This document shows, piece by piece, positions 3,887 to 39,310 of a DNA stretch of 64,000 bases. Location of the stretch: contig JANLFO010000008.1 in NCBI GenBank assembly GCA_024653205.1, forward strand, positions 1 to 64,000, in the 5' to 3' direction. The notes under the pieces were generated by a model, which was not told the origin of the DNA, did no database searches, and saw nothing but the letters and a program-made list of their open reading frames with translations. Position 1 is the stretch's first letter. Every line of letters begins with the position of its first letter. Origin of the DNA: Clostridia bacterium. Its GTDB lineage: Bacteria; Bacillota; DSM-521; Neomoorellales; SLTJ01. A program made the position numbers and the translations under genes.

Positions 3887-4231
3887 GTGCTTTCCGGCGA
3901 GGCGGGCTTCGTAGGCTATGTCACCAACACGGTGTTTCCCGATCCTTTGGGCGAAGCCGAGGAGGCCGTTCTGGTGGAAAGCCTTCTCCGCGGGGACCGG
4001 GAAGCCCGCAACGTGCTCATCGAGAGAAACCTCAGGCTGGTTGCCCATATAGTGAAGAAATTCGAGGGCACCGGAGAAGACCCCGACGATCTTATCTCCA
4101 TCGGCACCATCGGTTTGATCAAGGCGGTCAATACCTTCGATCCTTCCAAGGGTACCAAGCTGGCTACCTATGCCGCCAAGTGCATTGAAAATGACAGGCT
4201 GCGGTCTAAACCTGGCGGGATTTTATGGTAA
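3887..4231 (+). CDS. sigK: Sporulation sigma factor SigK, 5' part of an interrupted gene
   Basis: Residues 10-100 match the N-terminal half of mother-cell Sig[46 protein letters not shown] and [11 protein letters not shown] (regions 1.2-2.3). After CIEN the frame runs into unrelated sequence ([11 protein letters not shown]) and stops at 4231. The missing half lies 34.7 kb downstream. Start GTG 3887 follows GGGGGGAAGG; an in-frame GTG at 3860 lacks a ribosome site. Only about 10 residues precede the conserved GYV block, compared with about 20 in B. subtilis pro-SigK, so a cleavable pro-sequence seems absent. As it stands this half would make an inactive fragment. Confidence 0.9.
4185..4212 (+). 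other. Left attachment site of the sigK intervening element
   Basis: The conserved sigK codons for I-E-N end at 4192 and are followed by GA at 4193-4194; from 4195 the protein no longer resembles SigK. Joining GA here to the base after GA at 38927-38928 rebuilds the codons N-E-I-L-M, exactly the SigK order. Just inside the element at 4202-4210 is CGGTCTAAA, an imperfect inverted copy of TTTAGGCCG at 38918-38926 next to the right end, which could be a recombinase-binding arm. The 2-bp core is inferred from the restored reading frame. Confidence 0.75.
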
Positions 4232-4350
4232 TTCCAGGCCGCCTACGCCCCGGCTCCGGCTGGGAACGGTAGATTGTCGGGCCACTTGCGCCCCGTCCTT
4301 TCATTTGCGATAATAGTTAAGGCGTTAACGATTAGTTGGGAGGCGGGATC

Positions 4351-5814
4351 ATGTTCGCCGTTACCGGCGCCACCGGACACCTGGGCAACAACCTGGTCCG
4401 GATTCTGGTTTCCCGGGGCTATGCGGTCAGGGCCCTGGTTCTCCCCGGCGACAGCCTGCGGCCGCTGGAGGGCCTTGAGGTGGAGATCGTGGAGGCTGAC
4501 GTAAGGGACCTGACTTCCCTGGAGCGGGCCTTCAGGGGAGCGGAGGGGGTCTTTCACCTGGCCTCGGTGATTTCCCTCGCGCCCGGAGATGAGCCCTTGC
4601 TGGAGGCGGTGAACGTGGGAGGCACCGCCAACGTGGTGGAGGCCTGCCGCCGGGCAGGAGTCAGGCGGCTGGTGTACGTGAGTTCCATCCACGCCCTCCG
4701 CGAGCCTGCCGAGGGCGGCACCGTGGACGAGACCTGCTTTGCGGGTCCTGCCGATCTCCCCGACGCCTATTCCCGGACCAAGGCCCGGGCTACGGAGTTG
4801 GTACTGGGGGCCTCCGGTGAGGGGCTGGAGTGCGTGGTGGTGGCACCCACGGGACTTCTCGGCCCGTACGACTATGCGCCCTCGCTGATGGGAAGGGCCA
4901 TTCTGGACGTCGCCCGGGGAAAGTTTGCCGTGACCTTCGACGGCGGGTACGATTTCGCCGATGCCCGGGATGTGGCCGAGGGAATAGTGGCCGCCTGGTT
5001 GCGGGGCCGACCGGGGCAGCTCTACCTCCTCCCCGGAGAGTGGGTTTCGGTGCCGTTCCTGGTGAACACCGTATGCCGGCTGGCGGGCAGGCCGTTGCCG
5101 CGGGTTCACCTGCCGTATTCCTTCATGATGGGCGTGGTGGGGTTGGTGGAGGCCGTGGGCTACCGCTGGATAAACCGGCAGGCGCTGAAGATCCTGGCCA
5201 CCCGGGCCGTAATCTCCTCGGAGAAGGCCCGCTCGGAGCTGGGCTACCGCTCACGGCCGGTGGCGGAGAGCCTTGAGGATACCCTGGCCTGGTTCGAGGC
5301 CCAGGGGTGGCTGCGGGGGGTGCGGGCCCGGGCGGTCGCCAGGCAGGCGGGAAGCGCCGGCGGATTTGAGGCCCTGGTGATGACCGCCAACCGGGTAATC
5401 GAGGCCGGTCAGGCCTGCCTCAACCTCAAGCTCCGGGGGAGCCGGCTCACCGGCGCCGAGGCCAACGTCCTCATGTTTCTGTACACTCACGGCGAGGGAG
5501 TAATCCAGGAGGATATCGTAACCGGCATGGAGCTCACCCGGCCGGCGATCTCGCGCACTCTGAGAGAGCTGGAACGCAAGGGCTACGTGCACCGCTACCC
5601 GGCAGAAAGGGACCGCCGCTCCCGCCAGGTGTTTCTTACCGACAGGGCTTTCGAGGAAAAGGCACGGGTGGAGGAGGCCTATCGCCAGATTGTGGCCGCG
5701 GCCACGGAAGGCATACCGGAGGAGAAGGCCGGGGAGTTCCTGGGCTACCTCCGCCGGGTGGCGGAGAACCTGGACGCCTACCGGAAGGAACTGAAGATGG
5801 ATAAGGCCGGATAG
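4351..5814 (+). CDS. NAD-dependent epimerase/dehydratase fused to a MarR-type DNA-binding domain
   Basis: Residues 1 to about 320 form an extended SDR: nucleotide-binding TGATGHLGNN at 5-14, SSIHAL as the Ser strand and YSRTK as the catalytic YxxxK. From about residue 345 the same frame continues into a winged-helix domain of MarR type (EEDIV-like helix, TRPAISRTLRELERKGYVHR recognition helix and wing, then RDRRSRQVFLT). Sugar-nucleotide or steroid-like substrates are possible for the SDR part, but none can be named. ATG 4351 follows GGGAGGCGG. No frameshift or stop separates the parts. It is the first gene inside the element, 157 bases from the left site, and converges on the LigD polymerase gene. 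Confidence 0.8.
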   Translation: MFAVTGATGHLGNNLVRILVSRGYAVRALVLPGDSLRPLEGLEVEIVEADVRDLTSLERAFRGAEGVFHLASVISLAPGDEPLLEAVNVGGTANVVEACRRAGVRRLVYVSSIHALREPAEGGTVDETCFAGPADLPDAYSRTKARATELVLGASGEGLECVVVAPTGLLGPYDYAPSLMGRAILDVARGKFAVTFDGGYDFADARDVAEGIVAAWLRGRPGQLYLLPGEWVSVPFLVNTVCRLAGRPLPRVHLPYSFMMGVVGLVEAVGYRWINRQALKILATRAVISSEKARSELGYRSRPVAESLEDTLAWFEAQGWLRGVRARAVARQAGSAGGFEALVMTANRVIEAGQACLNLKLRGSRLTGAEANVLMFLYTHGEGVIQEDIVTGMELTRPAISRTLRELERKGYVHRYPAERDRRSRQVFLTDRAFEEKARVEEAYRQIVAAATEGIPEEKAGEFLGYLRRVAENLDAYRKELKMDKAG

Positions 5815-5824
5815 GTCGGGACCG

Positions 5825-6748
5825 TTACCCCCGTATGGAGTAGAGCAGACGGTCCAGGCCCTGCTCCTCCCGCAGCACCGGGGCAAAGACGTCGCCGCGC
5901 CGGGCCAGCATCTCGGGTACGGTGGCCAGGTTGAAACGGAGCGGGTCCAGCTTTTCGTCCTCCAGTTCTTCCCAGGTAAGGGGAAAGGATACGGGCGCTC
6001 CGGGGAGGGGGCGCACGCTGTACACCGAGGCAATGGTCTTGCCGCGCCCGTTTTGGCCCACGTCCAGGTAAACCCGTCCCGAGCGCCGCCGGACCGCCCT
6101 TTCGAGGGTGCAGAGGTCCGGCCAGGCGGCCACGCACCAGCGCGCCAGGGCGGCGAGGGCCCGCCGGACTTCGGCATAGGTGTAGCGGGGAGCCAGGGGC
6201 AGGTAGAGGTGCAGGCCGGTGGCCCCGGAGGTTTTGGGGTAGCACCTCAATCCCAGCCGGTCGAACAGGCGGCCGAGGCGCCGGGCCAGCAACCGGGCCT
6301 CGGCGAAACCCGCCGGCGGGGCGGGGTCGAGATCTACCACGGCAACCGTGGGATGGTCGGGCGCGTTCCACCGGGAGAGCCAGGGATGGATCTCTATCGA
6401 GCCTTGGTTTACCACCCAAAGCAACCCTGCCAGGTCGGCGACCAGCACGTAGGTAACCGCCGGGCGGCGGCCGCCGGAAGGCAGCGGCACCCGGGGCAGC
6501 CAGTCGGGCGCGTATTCCGGGCACTCTTTCTGGTAAAAGGAAGGGCCCCGGATGCCTTCCGGGAAACGGTGCAGCACCAGCGGACGTCCGGCGAGGTGCG
6601 GCAGGAGATAGGAGCTCACCTCCGCGTAGTAGCGCAGGAGATGGGCCTTGGTATAGCCTTCGTCCGGCCAGAACACCTTCTCGGGGTTACTCAGCCCCAC
6701 TTCTAAGCCCTCTACCTTTACGGTCAACCTTGTCCGCGTACTCTCCAC
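5825..6748 (-). CDS. LigD-type DNA polymerase/primase domain protein (NHEJ)
   Basis: Stand-alone homologue of the polymerase domain of bacterial LigD (archaeo-eukaryotic primase fold), which fills gaps during non-homologous end joining. Seen in the 307 residues: LSNPEKVFWPDEGYTK near the N-terminus, the catalytic pair in VVDLDPAPP, SGATGLHLYLPL, and DVGQNGRGKTIASVYSVRP, in family order. The GTG at 6748 gives the expected N-terminus; the frame is open further upstream, but that part does not resemble the family. It is divergent from the ligase gene (72-base gap) and Ku follows that, so LigD is split into separate genes here. No nuclease (phosphoesterase) domain is visible. Confidence 0.88.
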   Translation of the reverse strand: MESTRTRLTVKVEGLEVGLSNPEKVFWPDEGYTKAHLLRYYAEVSSYLLPHLAGRPLVLHRFPEGIRGPSFYQKECPEYAPDWLPRVPLPSGGRRPAVTYVLVADLAGLLWVVNQGSIEIHPWLSRWNAPDHPTVAVVDLDPAPPAGFAEARLLARRLGRLFDRLGLRCYPKTSGATGLHLYLPLAPRYTYAEVRRALAALARWCVAAWPDLCTLERAVRRRSGRVYLDVGQNGRGKTIASVYSVRPLPGAPVSFPLTWEELEDEKLDPLRFNLATVPEMLARRGDVFAPVLREEQGLDRLLYSIRG

Positions 6749-6820
6749 GATGCTTAGATTTGCCGGGACGGTGCGGGGGAATACTTCCTCCGAGACTGCT
6801 TCGTTGAGGAGGGACGGTTC

Positions 6821-7762
6821 GTGGTCGGCCGGAACCTGGTGCCCATGGAGCCGGTAACCTGGCCGGCACCCTTCGACCACCCGGACTGGCTCTTCCAGCC
6901 CAAGTGGGACGGGGTAAGGATCCTCGCCCACGTTCGGGGGCCGGAGGTCCGCCTGATCAACCGGCGGGGCAGGGAGCGGACGGCCCACTATCCGGAAATC
7001 GTAGAAGGGGTTAGGGCGGTTCTTAGGGGCCAAAACGCGGTGCTCGACGGGGAGATGGTCGTGTTCTGGGAGGGGCGGCCGAGCTTCCCCCGGGTCATGC
7101 GGCGCGAGACGGCCGCACCCGGGGGACCGTCCCTGGCCGTACTCCGGCGTACCCTCCCCGCCACCTACATGGTCTTTGACCTCCTCCACCTCGACGGCCG
7201 TGAGCTGATCGGACTGGAGCTGGAAGCACGCCAGGAACTCCTTCGTCGGCACCTCGTCGCCGGCGAGCCGGTGCTGCTGACCGACAGCTTCGATCAGGGC
7301 AGCCGTCTTTTCGCCGCGGTGGAAGAAAGGGGATGGGAGGGTGTAGTGGCCAAGCGGCGGGGCAGCCCGTACCGGTTCGGGAAAAGCCCGCTGTGGCGCA
7401 AGATCAAGGTCAGGCGGCGCCAGCCCTGCGTGGTGGGCGGTTTCACGGTAGCCTCGGGGGGAGTGGTGGGGAGCCTGCTGCTGGGCGTGTGGCGGGAGCA
7501 GGACCTGATGTACGTCGGCCGGGCGGGAAGCGGCCTCGGCGGTGAGGAACGGGAGGCACTTGCCCGGGTTCTGGCGGAAACCGTGCAGCCGGAGTGCCCC
7601 TTCGATCCGGTCCCCCGCATGCGGGGGCCGGCCGTTCGCTGGGTGGCTCCCCTCCTCAGCGTACTGGTGGAGTACGGCGAGTGGACGGAGGGGCTGCACC
7701 TCCGCCACCCGGTGGTCGTGGGTTTCAATCCGGTGCCGGTCAGCGCCTGTCGGCTGCCGTAG
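6821..7762 (+). CDS. ATP-dependent DNA ligase (LigD/LigC ligase domain)
   Basis: The protein seals nicks using ATP. Of 313 residues, K28 in KWDGVR is the adenylated lysine (motif I); DGEMVVF (III), EGVVAKR (IV) and WRKIKV (V) follow, then a short OB-fold region (VVGGFTVASGG, LGVWREQDLMYVGRAGSG). This is the minimal size of NHEJ ligase domains. Start GTG 6821 lies 6-7 bases after GAGGAGGGA; ATG 6845 would remove eight residues. Its 3' end overlaps the 3' end of ku by 23 bases (convergent). With the adjacent polymerase and Ku it makes a full end-joining set inside the element. Confidence 0.92.
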   Translation: MVGRNLVPMEPVTWPAPFDHPDWLFQPKWDGVRILAHVRGPEVRLINRRGRERTAHYPEIVEGVRAVLRGQNAVLDGEMVVFWEGRPSFPRVMRRETAAPGGPSLAVLRRTLPATYMVFDLLHLDGRELIGLELEARQELLRRHLVAGEPVLLTDSFDQGSRLFAAVEERGWEGVVAKRRGSPYRFGKSPLWRKIKVRRRQPCVVGGFTVASGGVVGSLLLGVWREQDLMYVGRAGSGLGGEEREALARVLAETVQPECPFDPVPRMRGPAVRWVAPLLSVLVEYGEWTEGLHLRHPVVVGFNPVPVSACRLP

Positions 7763-8820: not shown

Positions 8821-10188
8821 CTAGCGGTCGAGGGCCCACCAGCCGATAACGCTGCCGCTGCGCGGCAGTCTGATCCCTTCGCGGGCCTCCAGTTCCCGGG
8901 CCCAGTCGCCCAGGGGGCAGGCGTGGTGGATTATCAGCGGCACGCTATGGGCCGGCAGCACGTCGTAAGGGAGGCCGTAGGCGGCAAAGGTGCGCTGCAT
9001 CTCGGCCAGGCTTTCCGCCGTATCCCAGGGAGTGGGGTGTATCAAACCGTGAACCGATCCCTCGCAGCTGGCGTAAGCCCAGTTGTCCGGAAACTCGTCC
9101 TTGAGCCGGCGCATGAGGTCTACGGCGGCAAGATTTGTTTGCCTGGTCGTTCCCTTGTTGAGGTTGCGCAGGATGCGGTCGTCGAAGGACTCCAGGCCCA
9201 CCGAGGCGAGGCGCAGCAAAATCCCCCTTTCCCGGGCACGCTTCAGAGCCTCGCGGGCGTTATGCTCCTGGCGGACGAACCAGTCGGCCCGCATCACCAG
9301 GTCGACCTGTGAGATCTTGAGGCCCCGGGAGGCGATTTCGTCCAACAGCCGGGGCAGCTGGGGCAAGGGATTCTCGTTGATGAGCTCGAAGGGTATCTTG
9401 CTTCCGTTTTCTTCCGGCAGGGCCCGAATTTGTTCTACCACCACCTCTATGGGGAACCTGCCCGCGTAACCCTTGTCGGTGGCCACGTCGCAGAAGCTGC
9501 AGCCGCGAAGCCTGACCGGGATGGAGCTCTGCTTGCCCAACGCCGTAGGGTAGTCTACGGCAATTTCCTTTGCCGCCACCGCGTAGGGGCAGCCCAGTTG
9601 CTGTATCACCTGGGCGCTTTCCACCTTAAGGGGGACAAGACTTCCGTTGTCTACCCGGTAAAGGTTATCCCAGCGCACGAAGCGGAAAAAGGCGGCATCC
9701 CAGGGCCGCGCCGGATTCCGGCCCCCGCAGGTAACGATTCCCGCACCTTCCGGGGGAAGCGCAGGGTTCTCTTCCTGCAGTACGGGAATAATCTGTTCCG
9801 CCGGCCCCTGTACGGCAAAACTGAAACACCGGTGATAGCCCTGGAAGCGGTGCGGCTCCAGGTCTTTTCCTTCCTCGCCGAGGAAGTCCACCGCCGCCTG
9901 GGGGCCGCCGAGGACGGTAGTGACCCCGTCCTGCTTGAAGGAGGCGGCGAGTTCGAAAAGCTCGGGCCGGCCGCTGAGGGTGGAAAAACCCACTACGGGC
10001 CTATCCTCGCCCAGGTAGGAGTAAATGGCCTTCCTGACCTCGGCGTGGGGCTCCTCTCCCGTGAGCGCCACCACCAGGCACTCGTAGGGGGTGTTCTCCT
10101 GGATTACGGTGGCCGCCAGCTGCGGGCCGAGCATGCCGTAAGTCTGACCCTGAAAGTAACTGGTGATGATGACCATCCTGGGACGCAT
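8821..10188 (-). CDS. B12-binding/radical SAM-like protein with an incomplete cysteine motif
   Basis: The 455 residues resemble cobalamin-binding radical SAM proteins: an N-terminal B12-binding-like Rossmann region (VVGFSTLSGRPELFELAASF, VLGGPQAAV), then a radical SAM-like barrel (RFPIEVVVEQIRAL, LRLASVGLESFDDRILRNLNKG). The cluster motif reads RLRGCSFCD: the CxxC is present, but Arg stands where the first Cys of CxxxCxxC would be. Either an unusual cluster ligand is used or the enzyme has lost SAM chemistry. Start ATG 10188 is preceded by GGAAAGGTGG. It lies downstream of the minus-strand uptake operon, 169 bases from the ATPase gene. Substrate unknown. Confidence 0.65.
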   Translation of the reverse strand: MRPRMVIITSYFQGQTYGMLGPQLAATVIQENTPYECLVVALTGEEPHAEVRKAIYSYLGEDRPVVGFSTLSGRPELFELAASFKQDGVTTVLGGPQAAVDFLGEEGKDLEPHRFQGYHRCFSFAVQGPAEQIIPVLQEENPALPPEGAGIVTCGGRNPARPWDAAFFRFVRWDNLYRVDNGSLVPLKVESAQVIQQLGCPYAVAAKEIAVDYPTALGKQSSIPVRLRGCSFCDVATDKGYAGRFPIEVVVEQIRALPEENGSKIPFELINENPLPQLPRLLDEIASRGLKISQVDLVMRADWFVRQEHNAREALKRARERGILLRLASVGLESFDDRILRNLNKGTTRQTNLAAVDLMRRLKDEFPDNWAYASCEGSVHGLIHPTPWDTAESLAEMQRTFAAYGLPYDVLPAHSVPLIIHHACPLGDWARELEAREGIRLPRSGSVIGWWALDR

Positions 10189-10357
10189 GGTGCGCGGCCA
10201 CCTTTCCCGGCTCGATCTGGCCCAAGCGCCTTTGCCGGCCGCATCCCGCCGTATCGCCTCCCCCAACTTAACACGAGCTTTGAGCCCGAGTCAATGGCAA
10301 ACCGGCCTCACGCTTCCCCCGAATGGCCCGCCTTCGGCAGGCAAGGGAGGCGGTTGA

Positions 10358-11188: not shown

Positions 11189-11194
11189 CGCGCT

Positions 11195-13467: not shown

Positions 13468-13526
13468 GCCGATCGCCTCCATACCCAAAGGTCACACTTG
13501 GGCGCTCCTGTATTCTCCCGTTCCAC

Positions 13527-16194: not shown

Positions 16195-16986
16195 ATGATG
16201 ATCGACCGGATCATAAGAGCCGCACTGCCGTCGGCTGCCGGCAGACGCGTCCAGGATGTCCGGCTGGGCCTGGGCCTGTGCGGGGTCATGCTGGATGACG
16301 GTTCCTGCGGGGTGAGCTTTGTCTTTCGCAGCGAGATTACCACTCCGCATTGCGCAGTGGTGGACGATCAGGGTGCCCTCGCGGGACGCGAGGTGACCGA
16401 GGTTATACCCTGGGCCGCCGACTATCGCAACCTGGCCCGCGCGTCGATCGGTGTGGCGGTCTTGAACGCGCTTAGCCAGAAGAGCCTGCCCTCGGGGGCG
16501 GCCGAGGGGGATGCACTGGACTGGTTGGAGATAAGCCCCGACGACGTGGTGGGAATGATTGGCTATTTCAAGCCTCTGGTTGAGCCGGTGCGCCAGAAGG
16601 CCAAAGCATTGATGATTTTCGAGCGCCGCCCGTCCGACGACGACCCGGACATTTATCCCGACTGGGCAGAACGGGCTCTGCTGCCGCAGTGCTCTGTGGT
16701 GATTATTTCCGGCACCACCATTATCAATAAGACTGTCGATCAAATCCTGGAATGGTCTACCGGCGCGCGGGAGATAGCCCTGGTGGGCCCCAGCGTGCCT
16801 TTTTATCCCGAAGCCTACCGGGACTCCGGTATTACTCTCCTCGGTGCCTCGCAGGTGGGCCCGGGTTCGGAGCGCGTTATCCTCGATCTGATCGGTCAGG
16901 GAGGCGGGGGGCTCAGTCTTTTCGGCCACCTGAGAAAGGTTACCGTCCGGCTTCCCAGGTGTTTCCAAGGAACTCAGGGCAGATAG
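16195..16986 (+). CDS. DUF4213/DUF364 (putative heavy-metal chelation) protein
   Basis: The 263-residue cytoplasmic protein has an N-terminal DUF4213-like part (IRAALPSAAGRRVQDVRLGL, then the TTPHCAVVDD segment) and a C-terminal DUF364 Rossmann-like domain with VGMIGYFKPLVEP and VVIISGTTIINKT motifs. DUF364 proteins are often found beside metal or cofactor transporters; the chemistry is not established. Start ATG 16195 (followed by a second ATG) has GAGGGGAGGAG upstream. It is the first gene after operator site 2 and precedes a ruined ATPase gene, so this is probably a collapsed uptake operon. Confidence 0.85.
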   Translation: MMIDRIIRAALPSAAGRRVQDVRLGLGLCGVMLDDGSCGVSFVFRSEITTPHCAVVDDQGALAGREVTEVIPWAADYRNLARASIGVAVLNALSQKSLPSGAAEGDALDWLEISPDDVVGMIGYFKPLVEPVRQKAKALMIFERRPSDDDPDIYPDWAERALLPQCSVVIISGTTIINKTVDQILEWSTGAREIALVGPSVPFYPEAYRDSGITLLGASQVGPGSERVILDLIGQGGGGLSLFGHLRKVTVRLPRCFQGTQGR

Positions 16987-17057
16987 CCTTCCCAGAATGG
17001 GGGAGACAATCGCTCACCGGGGCTGCGAAAACTCGATTTCTGGCGAGGTGCGGAGCC

Positions 17058-17600
17058 GTGTCCGATAGAGGGTGGGAGCCTGTCACTCTGGTTCCGCTGG
17101 GACAGGTGGAATCGGATTTTACCCTTTCTGATTCCCCGGAGTATAGCCGGGAAGCCTTCGGAGCCCGTTCGGGAGAAATCACGGTCCTGCTGGGTCCCAA
17201 TGGGTGCGGCAAGACCACTCTCATACGCTGCCTGCAAGGCCGGCTACGCCCCCAGAGCGGGAACGCCACCTGGCGAGGGCGCACGCTGCTGGACATGTCC
17301 CACGTGCAAATTGCCCGAACCATGGCCGTAGTTCCCCAGGAGCATACACCTCTCTTCCCTTTCACGGTTGACCCCAACCTCGCCTATACCTACGCCGATC
17401 ACATCGTCCTCCTGGCCAAGGGCAGGGTGGCGGCTCAAGGCCGCCCTCCGGACGTAATGACCGAATCCCACCTGAGTCAGGCGTATGAGTGTCCGATTCG
17501 GGTTGCCTCTTTCTCCGGCTTTGTGGAGGAGGGCGTCGGGGGCGCCGTTATTAGCCCCAAGTCGGTCGCCCCGCAGCAATATATAAGCGTGGCTCAATGA
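17058..17600 (+). pseudogene. ABC transporter ATPase with internal deletion
   Basis: An open frame of 180 codons retains Walker A (LGPNGCGKTT) and the Q-loop region (VVPQEHTPLFPFTV), then jumps directly into the H-loop tail (DPNLAYTYADHIVLLAKGRVAAQG). About 100 residues holding the signature LSGGE and Walker B are absent, so no ATP hydrolysis is possible. The segment before Walker A is also poor. The intact paralogues at 10358 and 19974 have TVHDPN or TLHDPN at the corresponding place, so the deletion probably ran between short ACGGTT-like matches. The frame was kept, but the product cannot work as a transporter ATPase. Confidence 0.85.
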
Positions 17601-17868
17601 TTGAACCGGGGCCATGGAACGGTCGGGCTTGGCCGAAGTGAGCGGAGCAGACATCGTAGCGGAGCGGTTGCGGAGAAGGGGCTAGACTTTAGGAGGGTGA
17701 ACGCGGGACGGCGTTATGCTGGAGGGGACATAGCGAGACCGGGCTCGCAGGTGGGCACATGAAGATCAGAAGGGAGGAACCGATCAAATGGGCTAATCCG
17801 ATCGAAGGGGTACCAAGCCAAGCAAAGCATTGACGCTGGCAACATCAACAAGCAGGGGGTAAGGAAAT
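17601..17868 (+). other. Leader region of uptake operon B
   Basis: 268 bases between the ruined ATPase and the binding-protein gene. It carries operator site 3 at 17712-17735. A 24-codon frame at 17760-17834 with no family resemblance may be chance. No riboswitch motif was recognised. Confidence 0.4.
17712..17735 (+). promoter_or_regulatory. ModE-like operator, site 3, upstream of uptake operon B
   Basis: Dyad CGTTATGC-N8-ACATAGCG with the same 8-8-8 spacing as the other sites. It lies 134 bases before the binding-protein start. The overlapping promoter is not obvious. Confidence 0.65.
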
Positions 17869-18927
17869 GTGAAAGGACGCAGCTGTAAAGTCAGTGCGTT
17901 GATCCTGACCACAGTTCTGTCTCTGGTATGGCTGGCGGGAGGTTGCGGTCAGCCCGCTACCGGGCCGGCGCAGGGAGGGGCGAAGCCTCAGACCATTACG
18001 GTCACCGACCAGCTGGGTCGTCAAGTAGAACTGCCCGCCAAAATCGAAAAGGTGGCGGCCTTTCACCATTTCGGTGCCAAGCTGATCTACGCCATGGGGC
18101 AGCAGGACAAGCTGGTGCACCAGGCTTTACTCGGCGTGGAAGCCAAGGCGATGGCCAAGGTCGATCCCAAGTTCGCAGCCCTGCCCAACCTGGAGGCCGA
18201 GGGACACGATGTCAATATCGAAAGTGTGGTGGCCCTTGGGCCCCAGGTGGCCTTTGTCTACAGTTCGTTTGATCAAAAGGAACTGGAGGCGCTCGAAAAC
18301 GCCGGCATTAAGGTGATCGGCCTCAGGGGCGAAACCCTGGAGGAGAGCTATGAGGCGGCCAGACTGGTGGGTAAAGTGCTGGGGTGCGAAGACAAGGCAG
18401 AGGCCTATATAAAGTACTGTCAAGACCTGGTGAAAATGGTTCGGGATCGGCTGGCCGACCTGCCTGCCGACCAGCGTCCAAAAGTGCTGTGCGCCGGTCC
18501 CAAGAGCATCTTCACCGCAGCCACCGGGGAAATGCTGCAGTCGACCATGATTGAGCTGGCGGGTGGCAAGAACGTGGCCGCCGAACTCAAGGGGTTCTGG
18601 GCTTCGGTGTCGCCGGAACAGATCGTGCAGTGGAACCCCGACTACATCTTACTGGGTTCCTCGCTGGGCAAGGTTTCCGTGGGTGACGCCCTCAAGAATC
18701 CCGGCCTCCAGACGGTCAAGGCAGTCAAAGAGGGCAAGATATATGCCATTCCCTCGAATATAGGCTGGTGGGACTTCCCGGCCCCACAGTGCGTGCTGGG
18801 CATCGTTTGGATGGCCAAGACCCTGCACCCGGATAGGTTCCGGGATGTCGACCTGACCAAGATGGCCGACGATTACTACAGCCGGTTCTGCGGGTATTCC
18901 TTCACCGCTCTGGGCGGCAAGCTTTAA
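17869..18927 (+). CDS. ABC transporter substrate-binding lipoprotein (uptake operon B)
   Basis: FecB/BtuF-class binding protein, 352 residues, with signal peptide and lipobox LAGGC. It shares QTITVTDQLGRQVELPAKIEKVA and VSPEQIVQWNPDYILL with the operon A protein, and both end with a TALGGKL / SEVGGTL-like tail. The start GTG 17869 follows GGGGGTAAGGA; an out-of-frame ATG overlaps it. It is followed by a permease, an ATPase and the remnant of the radical SAM pair, the same set as operon A in a different order and orientation. Confidence 0.9.
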   Translation: MKGRSCKVSALILTTVLSLVWLAGGCGQPATGPAQGGAKPQTITVTDQLGRQVELPAKIEKVAAFHHFGAKLIYAMGQQDKLVHQALLGVEAKAMAKVDPKFAALPNLEAEGHDVNIESVVALGPQVAFVYSSFDQKELEALENAGIKVIGLRGETLEESYEAARLVGKVLGCEDKAEAYIKYCQDLVKMVRDRLADLPADQRPKVLCAGPKSIFTAATGEMLQSTMIELAGGKNVAAELKGFWASVSPEQIVQWNPDYILLGSSLGKVSVGDALKNPGLQTVKAVKEGKIYAIPSNIGWWDFPAPQCVLGIVWMAKTLHPDRFRDVDLTKMADDYYSRFCGYSFTALGGKL

Positions 18928-18964
18928 ACCGTTCGGTACGGCATAGGTTGACCGGGGGGTTGAC

Positions 18965-19993
18965 ATGAAGAAGGGCTGGAGAACGGGTCTGGTCGTGGCA
19001 CTTATCGGGAGCATAGTTGTGGCCATGAACTCGGGCCGTTACGCCGTCAGTCCCGCCGGGGTACTGAGCATCCTGGCTCACGGCGTGGGTCTGGGGGGCT
19101 TGGTATCCCCACCCACGCCGGAGATGGAAATGGTGTTTTGGAATATTAGGGTGCCGCGTATCCTGGTGGCCTTCACTGTAGGCAGTGCTCTTTCCGTGTC
19201 CGGCGCCGTACTCCAGGCCCTTTTCCGCAACCCCCTGGCGTCGCCCGACATCGTAGGTGTAACCCAGGGCGCCGGGTTTGGAGCTGCGCTGGCGCTTATG
19301 TTCTTCCCGCCCTTGAGCGCGGTGGTGCAGGGCTCGGCGTTCCTGTTCGGTATCCTGGCGGTAAGCATTGCCTACCTTTTGGCCTCCCGAAGCCCGGACC
19401 GCTCGGTGGCGGTATTAGTCATTACCGGCATAGTGGTTTCCGCGGTCTTTCAGGCCGGTCTTTCTCTTCTTCAGTATTTCGCCGACCCCTACGACCAACT
19501 GGCCAAAATCGTCTTCTGGATTATGGGCAGCTTTCAGACCGCCTCCTGGGGCAACGTTCGCACAGTCGTCCCCCTGGTGGCGGCCGGAACGCTGTTACTG
19601 GTGGTGTTCGGCTGGCGATTGAACGTGATGGCGCAAGACGATGAGCAGGCTCTATCCCTGGGAATAAACGTCCCGGCCTGGCGCCTGTTATACGTCTTTC
19701 TGGCCACGCTCATTGTGGCCTCGTCAGTCTCGGCCACCGGCAATATTTCCTGGGTGGGTCTGATCGTACCGCATATCGGCCGCTACCTGGTCGGCTCGGA
19801 ACACCGGCGGTTGGTGGCCACCTCAGCCCTGATTGGGGGGATATTTCTGGTGCTTATGGACACCGCTGCCCGTTCCCTAATGCCAGGGGAAATCCCCATT
19901 AGCATCGTCACCTCGATGGTTGGGGCCCCATTCCTGGCCAGCCTGGTATTGAGCCGAGGAGGTGTGCTCAAGCGTGAGCATACGAGTGGATAG
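18965..19993 (+). CDS. FecCD/BtuC-type ABC transporter permease (uptake operon B)
   Basis: 342 residues, about ten membrane segments. Diagnostic: GAVLQALFRNPLASPDIVGV, TQGAGFGAAL, ISWVGLIVPHIGRYLVG and PGEIPISIVTSMVGAPFL. Start ATG 18965 lies after GGGGGGTTGAC. It overlaps the ATPase start by 20 bases, so translation is coupled. Paralogous to the permeases of operons A and C. Confidence 0.92.
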   Translation: MKKGWRTGLVVALIGSIVVAMNSGRYAVSPAGVLSILAHGVGLGGLVSPPTPEMEMVFWNIRVPRILVAFTVGSALSVSGAVLQALFRNPLASPDIVGVTQGAGFGAALALMFFPPLSAVVQGSAFLFGILAVSIAYLLASRSPDRSVAVLVITGIVVSAVFQAGLSLLQYFADPYDQLAKIVFWIMGSFQTASWGNVRTVVPLVAAGTLLLVVFGWRLNVMAQDDEQALSLGINVPAWRLLYVFLATLIVASSVSATGNISWVGLIVPHIGRYLVGSEHRRLVATSALIGGIFLVLMDTAARSLMPGEIPISIVTSMVGAPFLASLVLSRGGVLKREHTSG

Positions 19994-24346: not shown

Positions 24347-24363
24347 GCAGCGAGGGAGCATAT

Positions 24364-25194
24364 ATGCGCGTGAACGACGTGATTACCAGTCTTGAACAAA
24401 TAGTGGGCGACCATCCCTCGACTTCTTCCGGTGGCAGATACGACCCTCGGGCCCAGCTCCTGTGGCTGGGGGTAATGGTGGCATTAGCCTTTGTCTCTAA
24501 ATCCTGGTGGTATCTCCTGATTCTGCTCCTGGTTAACATCTTCTTCGTTTTCTTCTTCGCCGTGCCGTGGGCGAGAATTAAGCCCCTGGTACGGCTTAAC
24601 CTCTATATCCTAGGATTCTGTTTTTCGTTTCAGGTCCTATTCAATTGGGACGGTCCGGCGTTAGTATATCTCATACCCAGAGTCTCTGGCGTTGGCCCCT
24701 TCTGGCCCATTACCACTCAGGGGCTTTACCTGGGGGTATCGATGAGTCTGCGCTATGCCGACATTATTCTGCCCTCAATCGTGTTCAGCTCCGTGGTCCG
24801 CTTCAAAGCGTTGTTGCTGGCCTTCACCTCTCTGGGAGTACCGTACCAATTCGGCTATATGGCTCTTACCGCCCTGCGGTTCATACCGGTCCTGATGCGG
24901 GAGAGCGTCCAGATCCAGCAGGTGCAGCGGCTGCGGGGGCTGGCGTTTGACCGGCGCGGCCTCCGGCACAATCTCACGGTGGCCTATTCCCTAGCCATGC
25001 CGTTGCTGGTAAACTGTGTACTGCGGGCGAGAAACCTCAGCTTGGCACTGGAGAGCCGGGGCTTCAACTCTCACCCCTCGCGCACCGTCACCGAACGGTT
25101 GTGCTGGCAGAAGCGGGACAGTCTCCTGGTCGTGTTCCTACTGCTTCTGGTTATTACGTCCCTCGGGCTCCACTGGAGGCTCCCGTGGTTCTAA
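24364..25194 (+). CDS. ECF transporter transmembrane (T) component
   Basis: 276 residues with hydrophobic segments near 40-60, 75-95 and at the C-terminus, and the coupling-helix region RFIPVLMRESVQIQQVQRLRG, the Ala/Arg-Gly motif by which EcfT grips the two ATPases; a second such motif is ALESRGFN. ATG 24364 follows GAGGGAGC. It completes the lipoprotein-S-AA-T unit at 21410-25194. Ligand unknown. Confidence 0.87.
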   Translation: MRVNDVITSLEQIVGDHPSTSSGGRYDPRAQLLWLGVMVALAFVSKSWWYLLILLLVNIFFVFFFAVPWARIKPLVRLNLYILGFCFSFQVLFNWDGPALVYLIPRVSGVGPFWPITTQGLYLGVSMSLRYADIILPSIVFSSVVRFKALLLAFTSLGVPYQFGYMALTALRFIPVLMRESVQIQQVQRLRGLAFDRRGLRHNLTVAYSLAMPLLVNCVLRARNLSLALESRGFNSHPSRTVTERLCWQKRDSLLVVFLLLLVITSLGLHWRLPWF

Positions 25195-27526: not shown

Positions 27527-27554
27527 AGCCGTAGCGCAAGGGGGATGGGTTTCG

Positions 27555-29440: not shown

Positions 29441-29441
29441 T

Positions 29442-34379: not shown

Positions 34380-36568
34380 GTGGTAGGGTTGGGTCTCCAG
34401 CCATGGCAATTGCTAGCGATTGACGAGCTAACCAGCTTCTCTTTTCCCGCCTCTTGTCAGGACTTGGTGCAGGAAGCAGGGGAAAAGGCGTCCCGGGTAA
34501 TAGGGCTTCGCCGCCTGGCTGCAACTGTGGAGGAAGACGGCAAGACAGTGGAGCTCGGGCGCTGGGGCTTCGGGGACCGTGCTCCTTCAAAGGAACGGCT
34601 TCGGCATCTGGGCAAAGAGGTCCTGGTGCACGTCATGTCTGGCGTGGTGAAGGGACGGATATACCTGGAGCTGGGGCACAGGCCTTCGGCGCAGGAGCGG
34701 TGGGTTCTGAGGCTCTTGGCTCGCCGCTTGGAGGATTTGATCGCCACAAGGGAGATGGCACGGAAGGCCCGGCAATGGGAGCGGGCCTTCCGCGCCGTCC
34801 TCAACAACGTTCACAACGGGGTCTTCATTTTCGAGCCCGGCGGCCAGGTCTTGGAGGTAAACGACTCGGTGCTCGGGCTGTACGGGCTGGCGGACCGGGC
34901 GGAGGCCCTAGGCCGGTGCTTCTGGCGGGACTACTCCGCTCCCGGCTGCCGCCGGGAAGAAGTGGATCGATGGTGGGCCGAGGGGGCGGAGGAGGAAAGC
35001 CTTCACCTGGAGTGGCTGGCCCGGCGCCCCTCCGACGGCTCGGTTTTTGAAGCCGAGGCGCGCTTTGCCAAGGTGGACTTCTGCGGCCGCAAGGCCCTGT
35101 TGGCTACGGTTCGGCATAAGAGGAGGTTTAGGGGCGACCGCGGAGACCTGCTGCGGAGCGTCTTCGACCACAGTCCTACTGCCATGTATATAGTGAGGGA
35201 GGGCCGGTTTGAGATGGTAAATCCGCAGTTTGAGCGGCTTTCCGGCTACTCCCGGGAGGAATTGATCGACCGAGAGTCCTTGAGCCTGGTGTTCCCCGAG
35301 GACCGGGAGAAGGTGCGGCAAGCAGCGGTGCGCATGCTCAAGGGTGCTAACACCCGGCCTTATGAGTTCCGGGTGGTTACCAAGCAAGGCAGCCTCCGGT
35401 GGGTCGAGGAGACGGTCACATCTTGGGAGTACAGCAACCGGCGGGTCACCTTGGGCAGCGTAGTGGACATCACCGAAAAGAAGCGCTTTGCCCAGAGGCT
35501 GGAATATGTCAGCCTGCATGACCAGCTTACGGGGTTATATAATCGCGTCTATTTCGAGGAGGAGCTCCGGCGCCTAAGCAACAGCGAGGACTGCTACCCT
35601 GTGAGCGTGATTGTAGCCGACGTCAACGGCCTCAAACTCGTGAATGACACCCGGGGCCACGAACGGGGGGACGAACTGCTGGTGGCCTGCGCCCGGGTCC
35701 TTCAGCGCACTTTGCGCCGCTCGGACGTGGTGGCCCGAGTGGGGGGAGACGAATTCGTGGCCATTTTGCCCAAGACCGATGAGGCGGCCGGCACGGCCAT
35801 ACTGCACCGGTTGCAGGCGGCGGTGGAGGAGCATAACCACCGGCACCCGGAGCTGCCGTTAAGCGTTAGCTTCGGTCTCGCCACGGCCCGAACGCCGGAA
35901 GAATCCCTGCGGGAAACCTACCGCCAGGCCGACGACCGGATGTACCAGGAGAAGCTGTACTCGGAAACCACTGCCCGCGGTCAGGCCGTCAACGCCCTGG
36001 TGGCCGCCCTGGCGCAGCGGGACCATTTTGCCGAGGGCCACGCCCGGCGACTGGCCCACTGGTGCCGGAAGGTGGGTGAGCGTCTCGGGGCTTTCCAAAC
36101 AGCAACAGGCCAATTTGGCCCTTCTGGCCAGGGTTCACGACATTGGTAAGCTAGGTATTCCGGATGCCGTGCTGTTCAAGCCCGGGCCTTTAAGCAATGA
36201 GGAATGGGAGATCATGCGCCAGCACCCGGAAAAGGGCTACCGCATCGCTCTGGCCACGCCGGAGCTGGCCGGGGTGGCGGACCTCATCCTCAAGCACCAC
36301 GAGCGCTGGGACGGATCGATCAGGGTACCCCTTGGGACTAAAAGGCGAAGAGATCCCTCTCGAGTGCCGCATCCTGGCCATCATGGACGCCTTCGACGCC
36401 ATGGTCAACGAGCGCTGCTACCGCAAGGCCAAGACTCTCGCCGAAGCCATGGAGGAGATACGCCGATGCGCCGGCACTCAGTTCGATCCACGGCTGGCCG
36501 ACTTATTCCTCCAGATGGTGGCCGAGTGCGGGTGGGTGGAAGGTTCCGTCGAGCCTAACCGGGAATAG
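34380..36568 (+). pseudogene. PAS-PAS-GGDEF-HD-GYP c-di-GMP signalling protein, twice frameshifted
   Basis: Frame 1 (34380-36149) encodes an N-terminal region, two PAS-like segments (about 135-240 and 260-365), and a GGDEF domain with intact VGGDEF and an upstream RRSD I-site; it then enters an HD-GYP domain. One extra G in the run 36087-36090 ends frame 1 at 36149. Frame 2 carries VHDIGKLGIPD and HHERWDGS. A tandem GATC duplication (36314-36321) shifts to frame 3, which carries GYPLGLKGEEIPLECR to the end at 36568. As sequenced, a c-di-GMP synthase may still be made, but the phosphodiesterase domain is broken. Both shifts could be sequencing errors. Confidence 0.83.
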
Positions 36569-36758
36569 CCTGACGGGCAGGCTGCAAATTACCGGGTTTG
36601 AGGGAACCAGCCCCTTTCTACATCCATTCTTTTGGGCTTAACCGCTATGTGCCGGGTGATTTTTCGGTAGGCTCGGGAGCCCTGCCTTCACCGGCCGGCT
36701 AGAGAATAGATGCGGGGCAGGCGGCCCGATATATTGGGGGTGAAACCAGGGGGTAAAA

Positions 36759-36848
36759 GTGGTGGGCACTGAAGAGATAAAGAAGGCGGCTGTCCCGATC
36801 CTGAGACGGTACGGTTACCAGGCCCCAGGCTGGAGGGCCCGGGCCTGA
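36759..36848 (+). pseudogene. Possible N-terminal remnant of a MNT-type nucleotidyltransferase
   Basis: A 29-codon frame after AGGGGGTAAAA begins VGTEEIKKAAVPILRRYGY, like the first helix of minimal nucleotidyltransferases (MntA antitoxin class), where a GSVARGE motif should follow; here it stops. Short and unproven. Confidence 0.25.
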
Positions 36849-37230: not shown

Positions 37231-37398
37231 GTGCCGCGCAAGGCCGGGAGGAACGGCAAGGCCAAAGGAGGACGGCTGACGGTGAGGGTGCTGGGAAGCC
37301 CTTCGCCTGAAGCGCTGAAGCAGGCGTACTCGCTGGTGGCCAAGAAGCTGGTGAGGGAGCTGACCCGGGAGTGCGGGCGGCTGTCTACGTCCGAGTGA
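37231..37398 (+). CDS. Small protein overlapping the recombinase start
   Basis: 55 codons. GTG 37231 lies after AAAGGGGG; the basic start PRKAGRNGKAKGGR is followed by VRVLGSPSPEALKQAYSLVAKKLVRELTREC, a plausible amphipathic helix. The end overlaps the recombinase gene by 28 bases in another frame, so translation may be coupled. Short basic frames of this sort precede some clostridial large serine recombinases and could act as excision factors; no function is known to me. Confidence 0.5.
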   Translation: MPRKAGRNGKAKGGRLTVRVLGSPSPEALKQAYSLVAKKLVRELTRECGRLSTSE

Positions 37399-38936
37399 GC
37401 ACCGAGGAGCAGGTGGAGACCGGCTACAGCCTGGCGGAGCAAAGAGAAGCCTGCATCCGCCGGGCCAAGGAACTGGGGGCGACTTCCATAACCGTGTACG
37501 CCGACGAGGGGGTTTCGGGTGCCACCCTGGACCGGCCCGGCCTTTCCGCCCTGCGCCGCGAGGCCCGCTCCGGCCGCATCGAGCTGGTCGTGTGCCGCGA
37601 CCCCGATCGTCTTTCGCGCCGGCTGGCGCACCAGCTTCTTCTCACCGAGGAACTGGAGCGGTGGGGCGTACGGCTGGAATTCATCAGCTTCGAGTGGAAG
37701 GATACTCCCGAAGGTCGCCTCTTTTACGCAGTGCGGGGAGCCATAGCCGAGTACGAAAGGGAGAAGATACGCGAGCGCACCACCCTGGGCAGGCTGCAGA
37801 AGGCCCGTCAGGGAGGTATTCCCGTAGGGCTCGATCTGTACGGGTATACCTACAATCCCGAGACCGGTCGGGTAGAGGTCAGGGAGGAGGAGGTGGCGGT
37901 AGTAAGGGAGATATTCGTCCGGTTTGCCGGCGGTTGGGGTTACAGCGCCATCGCCCGCTGGCTGAACGAGCAAGGGGTGCCTACCAGGCGCAGGAAGGGC
38001 CCGTGGCACCGGCAGGTTGTGGCTCAGATTATCGCCAACAGCGCCTATGCGGGCACCTGGTACTACCGCCGCCGGGACTTTGCCGGAGGCAGGCGGGGCC
38101 AACCGGTCCCGCCCGAGCACTGGATTGCCGTCCCGGTGCCGGCCCTGATCCCGGAGGACTTATGGCTGGCCGCCCGGCAGAAGGCCGAGGCGGCGCGGCG
38201 GTTGTGGGCCAGCCGAGGCAAACACGATTACCTGCTGTCGGGGCTCGTGACCTGCGGTGACTGCGGTTTGCCCATGAGCGGCACCTGGATGAGCTGCTGG
38301 GGGAAACCGGACCGCCGCTACACCTGCCGGCGTCATGCCGCGGGCAGTAGGGGCGGTGGGTGCCGGCCGACGAAGGTGGTACTGGCCCGCCCGGTGGAGC
38401 AGGTGGTGTGGGATCGGGTAAAGGCGTGGCTGGGAGATAGCGAGACCCTGGCGCGGGAGGCCACCTCCGCATGGCCGGATGCGGAAGAGCTGCGGCGGGA
38501 ATTGGCCCGGGTGGATAGACTTCTGGTCGAGACCGAGCGGGGGCGCCAAAACGTGCTGGCCGCTCTGGCCGGGGGCTGGTTCGACCTCGATGCCAGGACG
38601 AGAAACATGCTGGCGGAGCTGAGGCACAGGGCGGAGCGTCTTAACCGACGCAAGAAAGAGATCGAGGCGGAGATAGCGCGGGGTACGGGAGGTGGGCCGG
38701 ACCCGGTCGGATTGCGCCTGGCCGCGGCAAGCCTGCTGGCCGGAATCGACGCCTTTGCCTTTGAGGAGAAGAGAGAGCTGGTGCGCGCCCTGGTCCAACA
38801 GGTTGTGGTGACCGGCCGCCCGAGGGCCGGCGACGCCTGCGGGGATTTAACGGTGACCGTGGTGCCCAGGACGGAAGAGGCACCGGACGGTGGCAATCCT
38901 TTCCGCCGGGCATTGACTTTAGGCCGGAAATACTGA
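37371..38936 (+). CDS. spoIVCA: Large serine recombinase of the sigK element (SpoIVCA-like)
   Basis: 521 residues in the order of large serine recombinases: resolvase domain (RAAVYVRVSTEEQ with the nucleophile Ser at about residue 10, DEGVSGATLDRPGL, CRDPDRLSRRL), the recombinase domain (IREIFVRFAGGWGYSAIARWLNEQGVPTR-like block), zinc ribbon (LSGLVTCGDCGLPM ... YTCRRHA ... GCRPTK) and a coiled coil near 370-440. GTG 37371 is the only sensible start. It lies at the right edge of the element; its last codons (GRKY, stop 38934-38936) contain the attachment site and its stop overlaps the ATG of the 3' sigK part. It should excise the element in the mother cell; the name is by role and position. 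Confidence 0.88.
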   Translation: MRAAVYVRVSTEEQVETGYSLAEQREACIRRAKELGATSITVYADEGVSGATLDRPGLSALRREARSGRIELVVCRDPDRLSRRLAHQLLLTEELERWGVRLEFISFEWKDTPEGRLFYAVRGAIAEYEREKIRERTTLGRLQKARQGGIPVGLDLYGYTYNPETGRVEVREEEVAVVREIFVRFAGGWGYSAIARWLNEQGVPTRRRKGPWHRQVVAQIIANSAYAGTWYYRRRDFAGGRRGQPVPPEHWIAVPVPALIPEDLWLAARQKAEAARRLWASRGKHDYLLSGLVTCGDCGLPMSGTWMSCWGKPDRRYTCRRHAAGSRGGGCRPTKVVLARPVEQVVWDRVKAWLGDSETLAREATSAWPDAEELRRELARVDRLLVETERGRQNVLAALAGGWFDLDARTRNMLAELRHRAERLNRRKKEIEAEIARGTGGGPDPVGLRLAAASLLAGIDAFAFEEKRELVRALVQQVVVTGRPRAGDACGDLTVTVVPRTEEAPDGGNPFRRALTLGRKY

Positions 38937-38940
38937 TGCA
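38918..38940 (+). other. Right attachment site of the sigK intervening element
   Basis: TTTAGGCCG (38918-38926) is followed by GA at 38927-38928, then ATACTGATG, which with the preceding bases reads E-I-L-M in sigK frame. Recombination at GA with 4193-4194 gives I-E-N-E-I-L-M-H-L, matching SigK. The site lies inside the recombinase's last codons. In the excised circle the recombinase frame would run on into element sequence to a TAA at 4311-4313. Confidence 0.75.
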
Positions 38941-39310
38941 CCTTAGAGCACTCAAAAAATACGCCCACGAGGTCTCCCTCTTTGAACCTATCGGCATCGA
39001 TAAGGAAGGCAATGAGGTGACGCTCATTGACGTGCTGGGCACGGAACCGGATGCCGTGGCCGAAGTCGTAGAGCGGGGCTACGATTACGAACGGGTGAAA
39101 CACCACCTGTCAGGACTCCACGATCGAGAACGCCAGGTGCTGGAGCTGCGGTACGGCATTCTGGGAGGGTTGCGGCGCACCCAGAGGGAGATAGCCAGGC
39201 GCCTGGGCATTTCGCGCAGCTACGTTTCGCGCATCGAGAAGAAGGCCATTCAGAAGCTCATCCAGGAACTGGAGAGGACCGCCCCCGACCGGCCCGCTCA
39301 CCAGATATAG
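38929..39310 (+). CDS. sigK: Sporulation sigma factor SigK, 3' part of an interrupted gene
   Basis: From ATG 38936 the frame encodes 124 residues: MHLRALKKYAHEVSLFEPI, GIDKEGNEVTLIDVLG, then region 4 with LHDRERQVLELRYGI, TQREIARRLGISRSYVSRIEKKA, the usual C-terminal half of SigK (end of region 2.4 to 4.2). After excision 308 bases of the 5' part and 382 bases here give a 690-base gene, 229 residues. A separate initiation at 38936 would yield only the DNA-binding half and should not be active. Bases 38929-38935 are shared with the recombinase end. Confidence 0.9.

What the first reader, a model, noticed from the sequence alone, without database searches (positions are those of the whole stretch)
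3887..39310. A ~34.7-kb skin-type element splits sigK and carries metabolic and repair cargo rather than a prophage
The two SigK halves (3887-4194 and 38929-39310) face the same way and join at a shared GA into a 690-base, stop-free gene with the conserved I-E-N-E-I-L-M-H-L order. A large serine recombinase sits at the right edge. Known skin elements (B. subtilis, C. difficile) are phage-like. I find no phage genes here, but NHEJ, uracil repair, ECF, MATE and three ABC uptake systems.
Basis: partly seen in the sequence, partly recalled or inferred. Interest (0 to 1): 0.95.

Follow-up and report, generated by a model that had tools for sequence, protein, structure and literature searches.

The report
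Excisable DNA insert splitting sigK
In this spore-former the gene for a late sporulation switch protein is cut in two by a 34.7-kb insert that carries its own DNA-cutting recombinase and ordinary bacterial genes, including what appears to be the cell's only copy of a DNA-end-repair gene, so the mother cell probably snips all of it out each time it makes a spore.

Summary
sigK is split at codons CIEN|E; its halves share a GA dinucleotide (4193-4194, 38927-38928). Joined in silico they score 334 bits against the SigK model (cut-off 298.65); no intact second sigK was found. The insert is 34,734 bp, ends in an open large serine recombinase (LSR), and its two ends form an inverted repeat centred on GA (16 of 30 positions, p about 0.001). 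In G001, of the same family, sigK is uninterrupted here.

"Uracil repair" was not found; NHEJ, MATE, an ECF system and three FecBCD-type ABC systems are there.

What is new lies around it. Close LSR relatives occur in 25 of 398 phylum genomes (this one included), in 21 at sigK. Thirteen inserts resolved end to end share the site, the GA core and a small ORF beside the LSR, yet range from 1.8 to 50 kb: the cargo is optional, and ORF plus LSR looks like the working unit. Here the insert encloses host genes, including the only Ku copy found. A second, related LSR splits an NDP-sugar pyrophosphorylase gene. Excision itself is inferred, not shown.

The parts
3887..4194 (+). sigK 5' half (start uncertain; GTG 3887, or 3860 in frame upstream)
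   Evidence: TIGR02846 157.6 bits, positions 13-114
4193..4194 (.). attL core dinucleotide GA
   Evidence: inverted-repeat symmetry of the reconstructed attP and intact joined codon
4336..5814 (+). NAD-dependent sugar epimerase (HpnA-like) fused to a MarR domain
   Evidence: Pfam/NCBIfam
5825..6769 (-). LigD-type primase-polymerase; the frame is open to 7708 but the part upstream overlaps the ligase gene on the other strand; start uncertain
   Evidence: PF21686 280.7 bits; TIGR02778 over cut-off; frame read
6821..7762 (+). ATP-dependent DNA ligase (NHEJ)
   Evidence: PF01068 + PF04679; 63% to G001:C581
7740..8678 (-). Ku; only Ku match in this genome
   Evidence: TIGR02772 316 bits; one match in G000, ortholog in G001 71%
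8821..10266 (-). radical SAM protein; ortholog in G001
   Evidence: PF04055; 70% to G001:C65
10358..15751 (-). FecBCD-type ABC uptake system 1 (ATPase 10358-11188, permease 13527-14573, binding protein 14573-15751) with an unknown protein 11195-12610 and an AmmeMemoRadiSam-like radical SAM enzyme 12406-13488 (below the model's cut-off)
   Evidence: Pfam/NCBIfam
16195..20786 (+). DUF364/DUF4213 metal-chelation protein, partial ABC ATPase frame (16752-17600), FecBCD-type ABC system 2 (17869-20786)
   Evidence: Pfam
22517..25194 (+). ECF transporter: double ATPase and CbiQ-like T component
   Evidence: TIGR04520 over cut-off; PF02361
25016..26596 (+). MATE efflux transporter (start uncertain, overlaps previous frame)
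   Evidence: PF01554, TIGR00797
27555..33573 (+). Ig-like protein, FecBCD-type ABC system 3 (28430-31399), TiaS/methanogenesis-marker-11-like protein (31425-32171, below cut-offs), SLH-domain protein (32413-33573)
   Evidence: Pfam/NCBIfam
34380..36558 (+). PAS-GGDEF and HD regulatory proteins; similar genes in G001
   Evidence: Pfam; 66% and 82%/63% (two HD frames) to G001:C434, a further copy at C479
37231..37398 (+). 55-aa ORF overlapping the start of the LSR; candidate recombination directionality factor
   Evidence: a small ORF stands directly before the LSR in 13 of 13 resolved inserts; dN/dS 0.18 and 0.29 in two pairs of 38 and 45 codons; no Pfam or PHROG match
37371..38936 (+). large serine recombinase, 521 aa, invariant Ser10; its stop codon lies past the attR core
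   Evidence: Resolvase + Recombinase + Zn ribbon; alignment
38927..38928 (.). attR core dinucleotide GA
38927..39310 (+). sigK 3' half
   Evidence: TIGR02846 157 bits, positions 112-226

Best explanation
It is a skin-type, developmentally excised element. Shown here by sequence: sigK is cut at codons CIEN|E; an open serine recombinase lies inside the insert; the insert ends form an attP-like inverted repeat around GA; joining at GA restores a full-length, family-typical SigK. Inferred: in vegetative cells and in the forespore sigK stays split; in the mother cell, at mid-sporulation, the LSR assisted by the small ORF product beside it recombines attL with attR, releases a 34.7-kb circle and makes sigK whole; the circle is lost with the mother cell and the spore inherits the split gene. 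Because excision is confined to a terminal cell, the insert can hold any DNA, including host genes that vegetative cells keep and the mother cell discards. The conserved working unit is the LSR plus the small ORF; the cargo is interchangeable.
For: Joined SigK over the equivalog cut-off and no second SigK. attP symmetry on GA in G000 and in all 13 of the 14 inserts tested that have a related LSR. A genome of the same family has sigK uninterrupted at this site, beside the at2-thiI gene block that lies near G000's C-half. LSR open with the invariant Ser10; the S10A form of the C. difficile LSR is reported inactive (PMC5025042). Related LSRs evolve at dN/dS 0.10-0.15 in 4 of 4 pairs, two of them from inserts of 1.8-2.3 kb. 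The sigK LSRs fall together in the tree and their divergence follows that of SigK (Mantel r 0.80, p 0.0001, 13 genomes). The genome has further sporulation-type sigma-factor matches (not assigned one by one) and SpoIIID. In C. difficile an LSR plus a 72-aa mother-cell RDF are reported necessary and sufficient for excision (PMC5025042, passages).
Against: No excised junction or circle has been seen; there are no reads or expression data. A scan for a sigma-E-type promoter (consensus recalled) upstream of the LSR gave nothing beyond chance in 12 of 13 inserts, G000 included. The small ORF as RDF is inference from position and weak conservation only. The start codon of the sigK 5' half is uncertain. 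That the organism sporulates is inferred from genes only.
Confidence: 0.85

Rival explanations
1. A dead insertion: sigK is permanently broken and the lineage no longer completes sporulation through SigK.
For: Excision cannot be shown from sequence. Some relatives have no SigK match at all (7 of 61 genomes without a match at E<=1e-30, one of them only 58% complete).
Against: Both halves keep in-frame SigK sequence with 75% (97 codons) and 69% (59 codons, to G001's contig end) identity to G001, close to thiI (74%); LSR, att symmetry and small ORF are intact; SpoIIID is present.
Confidence: 0.08
2. An ordinary mobile island (IME, ICE or prophage relic) that happens to sit in sigK, with no developmental role; excision serves transfer.
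For: Related LSRs occur in phages, 7 of 80 viral loci examined carry a SigK half near the LSR, and the Alicyclobacillus sigK phage has the top-ranked phage match (38%). The G058 insert has phage- or plasmid-like genes.
Against: No phage structural genes in the families shown by PHROGs and no relaxase or type IV secretion in Pfam hits of the called cargo; cargo includes genes that look vertically inherited; inserts of 1.8 kb with no other ORF of 300 aa or more persist, and their LSRs are under purifying selection.
Confidence: 0.05
3. Assembly or chromosomal rearrangement artefact: unrelated chromosomal DNA joined between two sigK pieces.
For: Draft genome of 51 contigs; part of the cargo is host DNA; sigK lies inverted relative to at2-thiI between G000 and G001.
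Against: Both junctions lie inside one 109-kb contig, on the exact dinucleotide used by 12 other inserts, and the insert ends form an inverted repeat.
Confidence: 0.02

Closest known systems
skin element of Bacillus subtilis (sigK, SpoIVCA)
   Same: Splits sigK and carries a serine recombinase; its published AATGA recombination sequence (PMC10745906 passages) is also what the host side reads here (4190-4194), so the site is probably the same (inference).
   Different: 48-kb prophage-like insert; here no phage structural genes were found, host-type genes lie inside, and the relation of this LSR to SpoIVCA was not tested.
skin-Cd of Clostridioides difficile (CD1231 LSR, CD1234 RDF)
   Same: LSR plus a small RDF coded inside the insert; excision in the mother cell (PMC5025042, passages).
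   Different: Reported as prophage-like, at another position and orientation in sigK (PMC10745906); its RDF gene is a separate gene, not numbered next to the LSR gene.
island IV in sigK of Bacillus cereus biovar anthracis
   Same: 22-kb sigK insert with no phage evidence, shown to excise and circularise during sporulation (PMC10745906, passages).
   Different: Different position in sigK (nucleotide 195); [quoted passage not shown]
gin element in gerE of Bacillus cereus
   Different: Different gene; three recombinases; lower GC than host, described as exogenous.
Alicyclobacillus phage MMB025 and Clostridium perfringens phage phiS63 (sigK-integrated)
   Same: Integrate in sigK; MMB025 LSR is the top-ranked phage match to this LSR (38%).
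   Different: Infectious phages; published core motif TCTC for MMB025 (PMC13141910, passages).

Membership tests
sigK-intervening (skin-type) element | Insert splits sigK and a short shared core restores the frame | tested here: met
sigK-intervening (skin-type) element | Serine recombinase coded inside the insert | tested here: met
sigK-intervening (skin-type) element | No other intact sigK; empty site in relatives | tested here: met
   G001 uninterrupted at the site; 42 of 61 genomes over the SigK cut-off
sigK-intervening (skin-type) element | Excision in the mother cell during sporulation | not testable with these tools
   needs reads, PCR or expression data
sigK-intervening (skin-type) element | Mother-cell control of recombinase or RDF (sigma-E, SpoIIID) | tested here: inconclusive
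   SpoIIID gene present; promoter scan not above chance in G000
prophage | Terminase, portal, capsid or tail genes | tested here: not met
   31 proteins against PHROGs, 25 of 29 families shown; the tail and endolysin hits are SLH domains
integrative conjugative element | Relaxase and type IV secretion genes | tested here: inconclusive
   none among Pfam matches of the called cargo frames; no dedicated conjugation search was run
large serine recombinase attachment system | attP inverted repeat around a central dinucleotide | tested here: met

The most novel reading that the evidence does not exclude
A two-gene switch (small ORF plus sigK-specific LSR) has been a long-lived, mostly vertically inherited part of sporulation control in many families of this phylum. 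Its smallest form is a 1.8-kb insert holding little else, so the interruption itself is what is selected. In the window's genome the switch has come to enclose host genes, among them the only Ku copy found, which makes the split gene hard to lose and means that the mother cell discards NHEJ genes each time it sporulates. Sister LSRs have moved to other genes (NDP-sugar pyrophosphorylase, ligD), giving one genome two such rearrangements.
Probability: 0.5. Interest if true: 0.78.

Novelty: new variant of a known kind. Interest (0 to 1): 0.62.

Why it matters
Whether sigK inserts are tolerated parasites or selected parts of sporulation is open (PMC10745906 states that the function of the insertion remains unclear). 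Inserts of 1.8-2.3 kb that hold little more than a recombinase and a small ORF, keep the same site and dinucleotide, and have LSRs under purifying selection make the question testable without cargo as a confounder. The small ORF is a defined candidate for the directionality factor, which is hard to find by sequence. The window's own insert suggests that the excised DNA can include host genes of core type, which would change how such elements are annotated: as programmed deletions in the mother cell, not only as mobile cargo.

Tried and rejected
Tried without result: (1) sigma-E promoter scan upstream of the LSRs with a recalled B. subtilis consensus: only 1 of 13 (G327) below p 0.05. (2) 'Uracil repair' cargo: no Pfam or NCBIfam support in the frames scanned; 12406-13488 is AmmeMemoRadiSam-like, 31425-32171 is TiaS/methanogenesis-marker-11-like. 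(3) The insert as a prophage or ICE: not supported. (4) Distinct base composition: GC of the insert 0.626 against 0.649 in the flanks of the window; no sharp boundary. (5) G043's 2.4-kb sigK insert as a member of the same group: its LSR is only 27% identical and its ends are not symmetric around the assumed core (9 of 30, p 0.54); left out of the 13. (6) G047 first looked split; its two pieces end at contig ends and their sequences overlap, so it is probably only an assembly break. (7) How host genes came to lie inside the insert was not resolved; G001 has its NHEJ genes on a contig away from sigK, with its polymerase gene itself cut by a sister LSR. (8) The sigK locus lies inverted relative to at2-thiI between G000 and G001; cause unknown. 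(9) Rfam found no RNA family in window 3800-39400.

Own errors corrected: one search read minus-strand loci in the wrong orientation, redone; one search used a SigK C-half query out of frame, redone; one search stopped because one LSR was not extracted, redone. In the tree the sigK rows share a fork with support 94/94, just under the tool's mark for a firm branch, with two rows then labelled unknown inside it; one of these (G168) proved to be at sigK, the other is a second LSR copy near sigK in G306. Some branches are long.
Full report
1. What is there. The window is contig C8, bases 1-64000, of a 2.455-Mb draft genome in 51 contigs. The SigK model TIGR02846 finds two halves in C8, positions 13-114 and 112-226 of the model, and no intact SigK elsewhere; the best other match, C13:33785, stays below the cut-off and lies beside a second sigma-factor match. 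The halves share GA (4193-4194, 38927-38928). Joined there, the frame gives CIENEILMHLR and 334.1 bits against a cut-off of 298.65. The insert is 34,734 bp.

2. The recombinase and its sites. The LSR (37371-38936) has Resolvase, Recombinase and zinc-ribbon domains and the invariant Ser10. Its stop codon lies beyond the attR core, so excision would change its last residues (read). The sequence that the circle would carry at its junction is an inverted repeat centred on GA: 16 of 30 positions pair against 7.3 expected (p 0.0008; 0.0010), while attL and attR do not pair.

3. Relatives. Of 61 genomes, 42 have SigK over the cut-off. SigK in two pieces meeting at the same place was seen in G000, G009, G014 (on two contigs), G016, G041, G043 and G058; G027 is split at another place. 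In G001, of the same family, SigK reads through the site without interruption up to the contig end. The LSR was found at E<=1e-110 in 25 of 398 genomes of the phylum, this one included, at 27 places. Checking the surroundings, 21 places (21 genomes) are at sigK, 2 in an NDP-sugar pyrophosphorylase gene (G000, G372), 2 in ligD (G010, G265), and 2 unassigned (a second copy in G306, and G332). Of the 21, both SigK halves were seen in 14; in 7 (G096, G137, G189, G194, G237, G306, G339) one half was seen beside the LSR in the stretch looked at. By name, Desulfocucumis palustris NAW-5 has such an insert of 3.2 kb, and a Bacillota MAG has the 5' half and an LSR at its contig end.

4. Thirteen inserts end to end. 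Of 14 inserts analysed (12 from the genome set, D. palustris, and G043), 13 have GA on both sides and a significant inverted repeat (p 0.0175 or lower); the 14th (G043) has a distant LSR and fails. Sizes: 1,778, 1,780, 1,794, 1,802, 2,106, 2,286, 3,186, 3,723, 19,460, 19,873, 22,300, 34,734 and 49,802 bp. In the six inserts under 2.3 kb the only ORF of 300 aa or more is the LSR. In all 13 a small ORF lies directly upstream of the LSR, inside the insert (G058 only, the other 12 again); counted from the first possible start it has 45-90 aa, and true starts are uncertain. Its common pattern is a hydrophobic strand (V-R/K-V-V-Y/F), an acidic or glycine-rich turn, then A-Y/F-R-x-L-A-K/R-K; identity between distant members is low (16-25% to the first row) and D. 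palustris keeps only the second part clearly. A similar ORF stands beside the NDP-gene LSR and the ligD LSR of G010. dN/dS is 0.10-0.15 for four LSR pairs, and 0.18 and 0.29 for two ORF pairs of only 38 and 45 codons. The ORF is thus a candidate for the directionality factor; in C. difficile this role is held by a 72-aa protein without database relatives (PMC5025042, passages). This is inference.

5. Inheritance. In a tree of 36 LSRs the 21 sigK rows share one fork (94/94) with two rows then labelled unknown inside it, next to the NDP (99/94) and ligD (100/100) LSRs. LSR and SigK identities correlate over 13 genomes (Mantel r 0.80, p 0.0001); much of this comes from close relatives, and at long distance LSR identity levels off near 50%. 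The top-ranked of 728 phage records is 38% identical (Alicyclobacillus phage MMB025, itself in sigK; 10 of 728 listed). Among 80 viral loci the best full-length matches are 36-38%, one partial match 48%, and 7 of 80 carry a SigK half near the LSR. A sigK-integrating phage is a plausible origin (inference).

6. Cargo. No viral structural genes were found. It holds an NHEJ set (polymerase, ligase, Ku), radical SAM enzymes, three FecBCD-type systems, an ECF system, MATE, an SLH protein and GGDEF/HD regulators. Ku occurs in 19 of 22 genomes of the order; in G000 its only match is inside the insert, 71% identical to G001's and 50-55% to the others. Polymerase, ligase, the first radical SAM protein and GGDEF/HD also match G001 at 63-82%, in the range of thiI (74%) and at2 (75%). 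I read these as host genes now lying inside the insert (inference); the GGDEF/HD pair has more than one relative in G001, so its orthology is less sure. The transport genes gave no DNA match in G001 at E<=1e-5. In sister inserts the cargo differs: phage- or plasmid-like in G058 (48 of 50 frames given); reverse transcriptase, transposases and ABC genes in the pooled set of G009, G016 and G041 (62 of 65 frames given); next to none in the short ones. The frames left out lie across the borders of fetched stretches.

7. A second rearrangement in the same genome. The LSR at C15:24034-25524 (55% identical) stands directly before the 3' part of an NDP-sugar pyrophosphorylase gene; the 5' part is on C17:47539-48195. 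The pieces join at GG with a 15-of-30 inverted repeat (not tested against shuffles). Both run to contig ends in the right orientation, so the insert would be at least 44 kb; contiguity is not shown. The gene is uninterrupted over the site in 18 of 22 genomes of the order; G000 and G001 are split, G017 has stops, G020 has only a partial match. G001 shows the same break. In G372 both parts lie on one contig, about 8.8 kb apart.

8. Against the reading. No excised molecule has been observed; promoter evidence is lacking; the small ORF is untested; the genome is a draft.

9. Literature. Searches. Read: PMC5595907 (abstract, sections 5 and 11), passages of PMC10745906, PMC5025042, PMC13141910 and PMC3533761. 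'sigK' with 'Moorella' and 'sporulation' gave 6 papers, 'skin element' with 'Desulfotomaculum' 2 (on arsenic genes), seen as listings only, apart from PMC3533761. I saw no description of recombinase-only sigK inserts in these; most subscription journals are outside the library.

10. Verdict. By sequence a skin-type element, a new variant of a known kind. The most useful results are the nearly cargo-free relatives, the small ORF and the enclosed host genes.

Noticed in passing
G000:C17:47539-48195 and G000:C15:22190-25524 (L125, L114): Second split gene in the same genome: NDP-sugar pyrophosphorylase cut at 'WCDIG', with an LSR 55% identical to the sigK LSR directly before the 3' part; also split in G001 (L289) and, on one contig, in G372 (L290).
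   Followed up: partly
G010:C6:127367-128839 (L088), G265:C54 (L153), G001:C581 (L122): Related LSRs split the LigD-type polymerase gene of the NHEJ set at a 'GxIE' site in three genomes.
   Followed up: partly
G014:C10 (L100, L191): A more distant LSR (about 30%) stands directly before a fragment that reads like SpoVAD (recognised by eye, no search run).
   Followed up: no
L092, L093, L101, L102 (G012, G004, G010, G020): A different LSR (32%) stands before the last dozen codons of sigK ('IEKKAIQKLLKEL'), while SigK matches there stop at position 219-220: a further insertion site at the sigK 3' end; G009 appears to have both.
   Followed up: partly
G048:C37:44027-46143 (L081): SigK match starts at position 62 with an LSR (31%) right beside it: possibly another site in sigK, near the nucleotide-195 site published for B. 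cereus biovar anthracis.
   Followed up: no
G027:C22:361722-405463: sigK split at yet another place, near codon 140 ('DKEGNE'), with about 43 kb between the halves.
   Followed up: no
G035:C1:589174-589503 and 613868-614524: A duplicate sigK 5' half with an attL-like arm ('PGGIYW') 24 kb before an intact sigK.
   Followed up: no
G020:C71 and G009:C3:378135 (L089, L099): Near-identical LSRs standing before an apparent 3' fragment of another conserved gene ('TLHIVDPKNPGAVDEI'); not identified.
   Followed up: no
window 26826-27245: Stretch between MATE and the Ig-like gene that matches two contigs of G001 and one of G003 at 66-74% DNA identity; no Pfam match for frame 26744-27682 and no Rfam family.
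   Followed up: no
window 36724-36845: Remnant of an MNT-type nucleotidyltransferase (by eye), matching DNA upstream of another LSR in G001:C576.
   Followed up: no
window 16752-17600: Partial ABC ATPase frame overlapping the DUF364 gene, possibly a broken or frame-shifted ATPase.
   Followed up: no
window 786-3749: Two CobQ/CobB-type amidotransferase genes just left of sigK; with the metal and corrinoid-type uptake genes inside the insert they may belong together.
   Followed up: no
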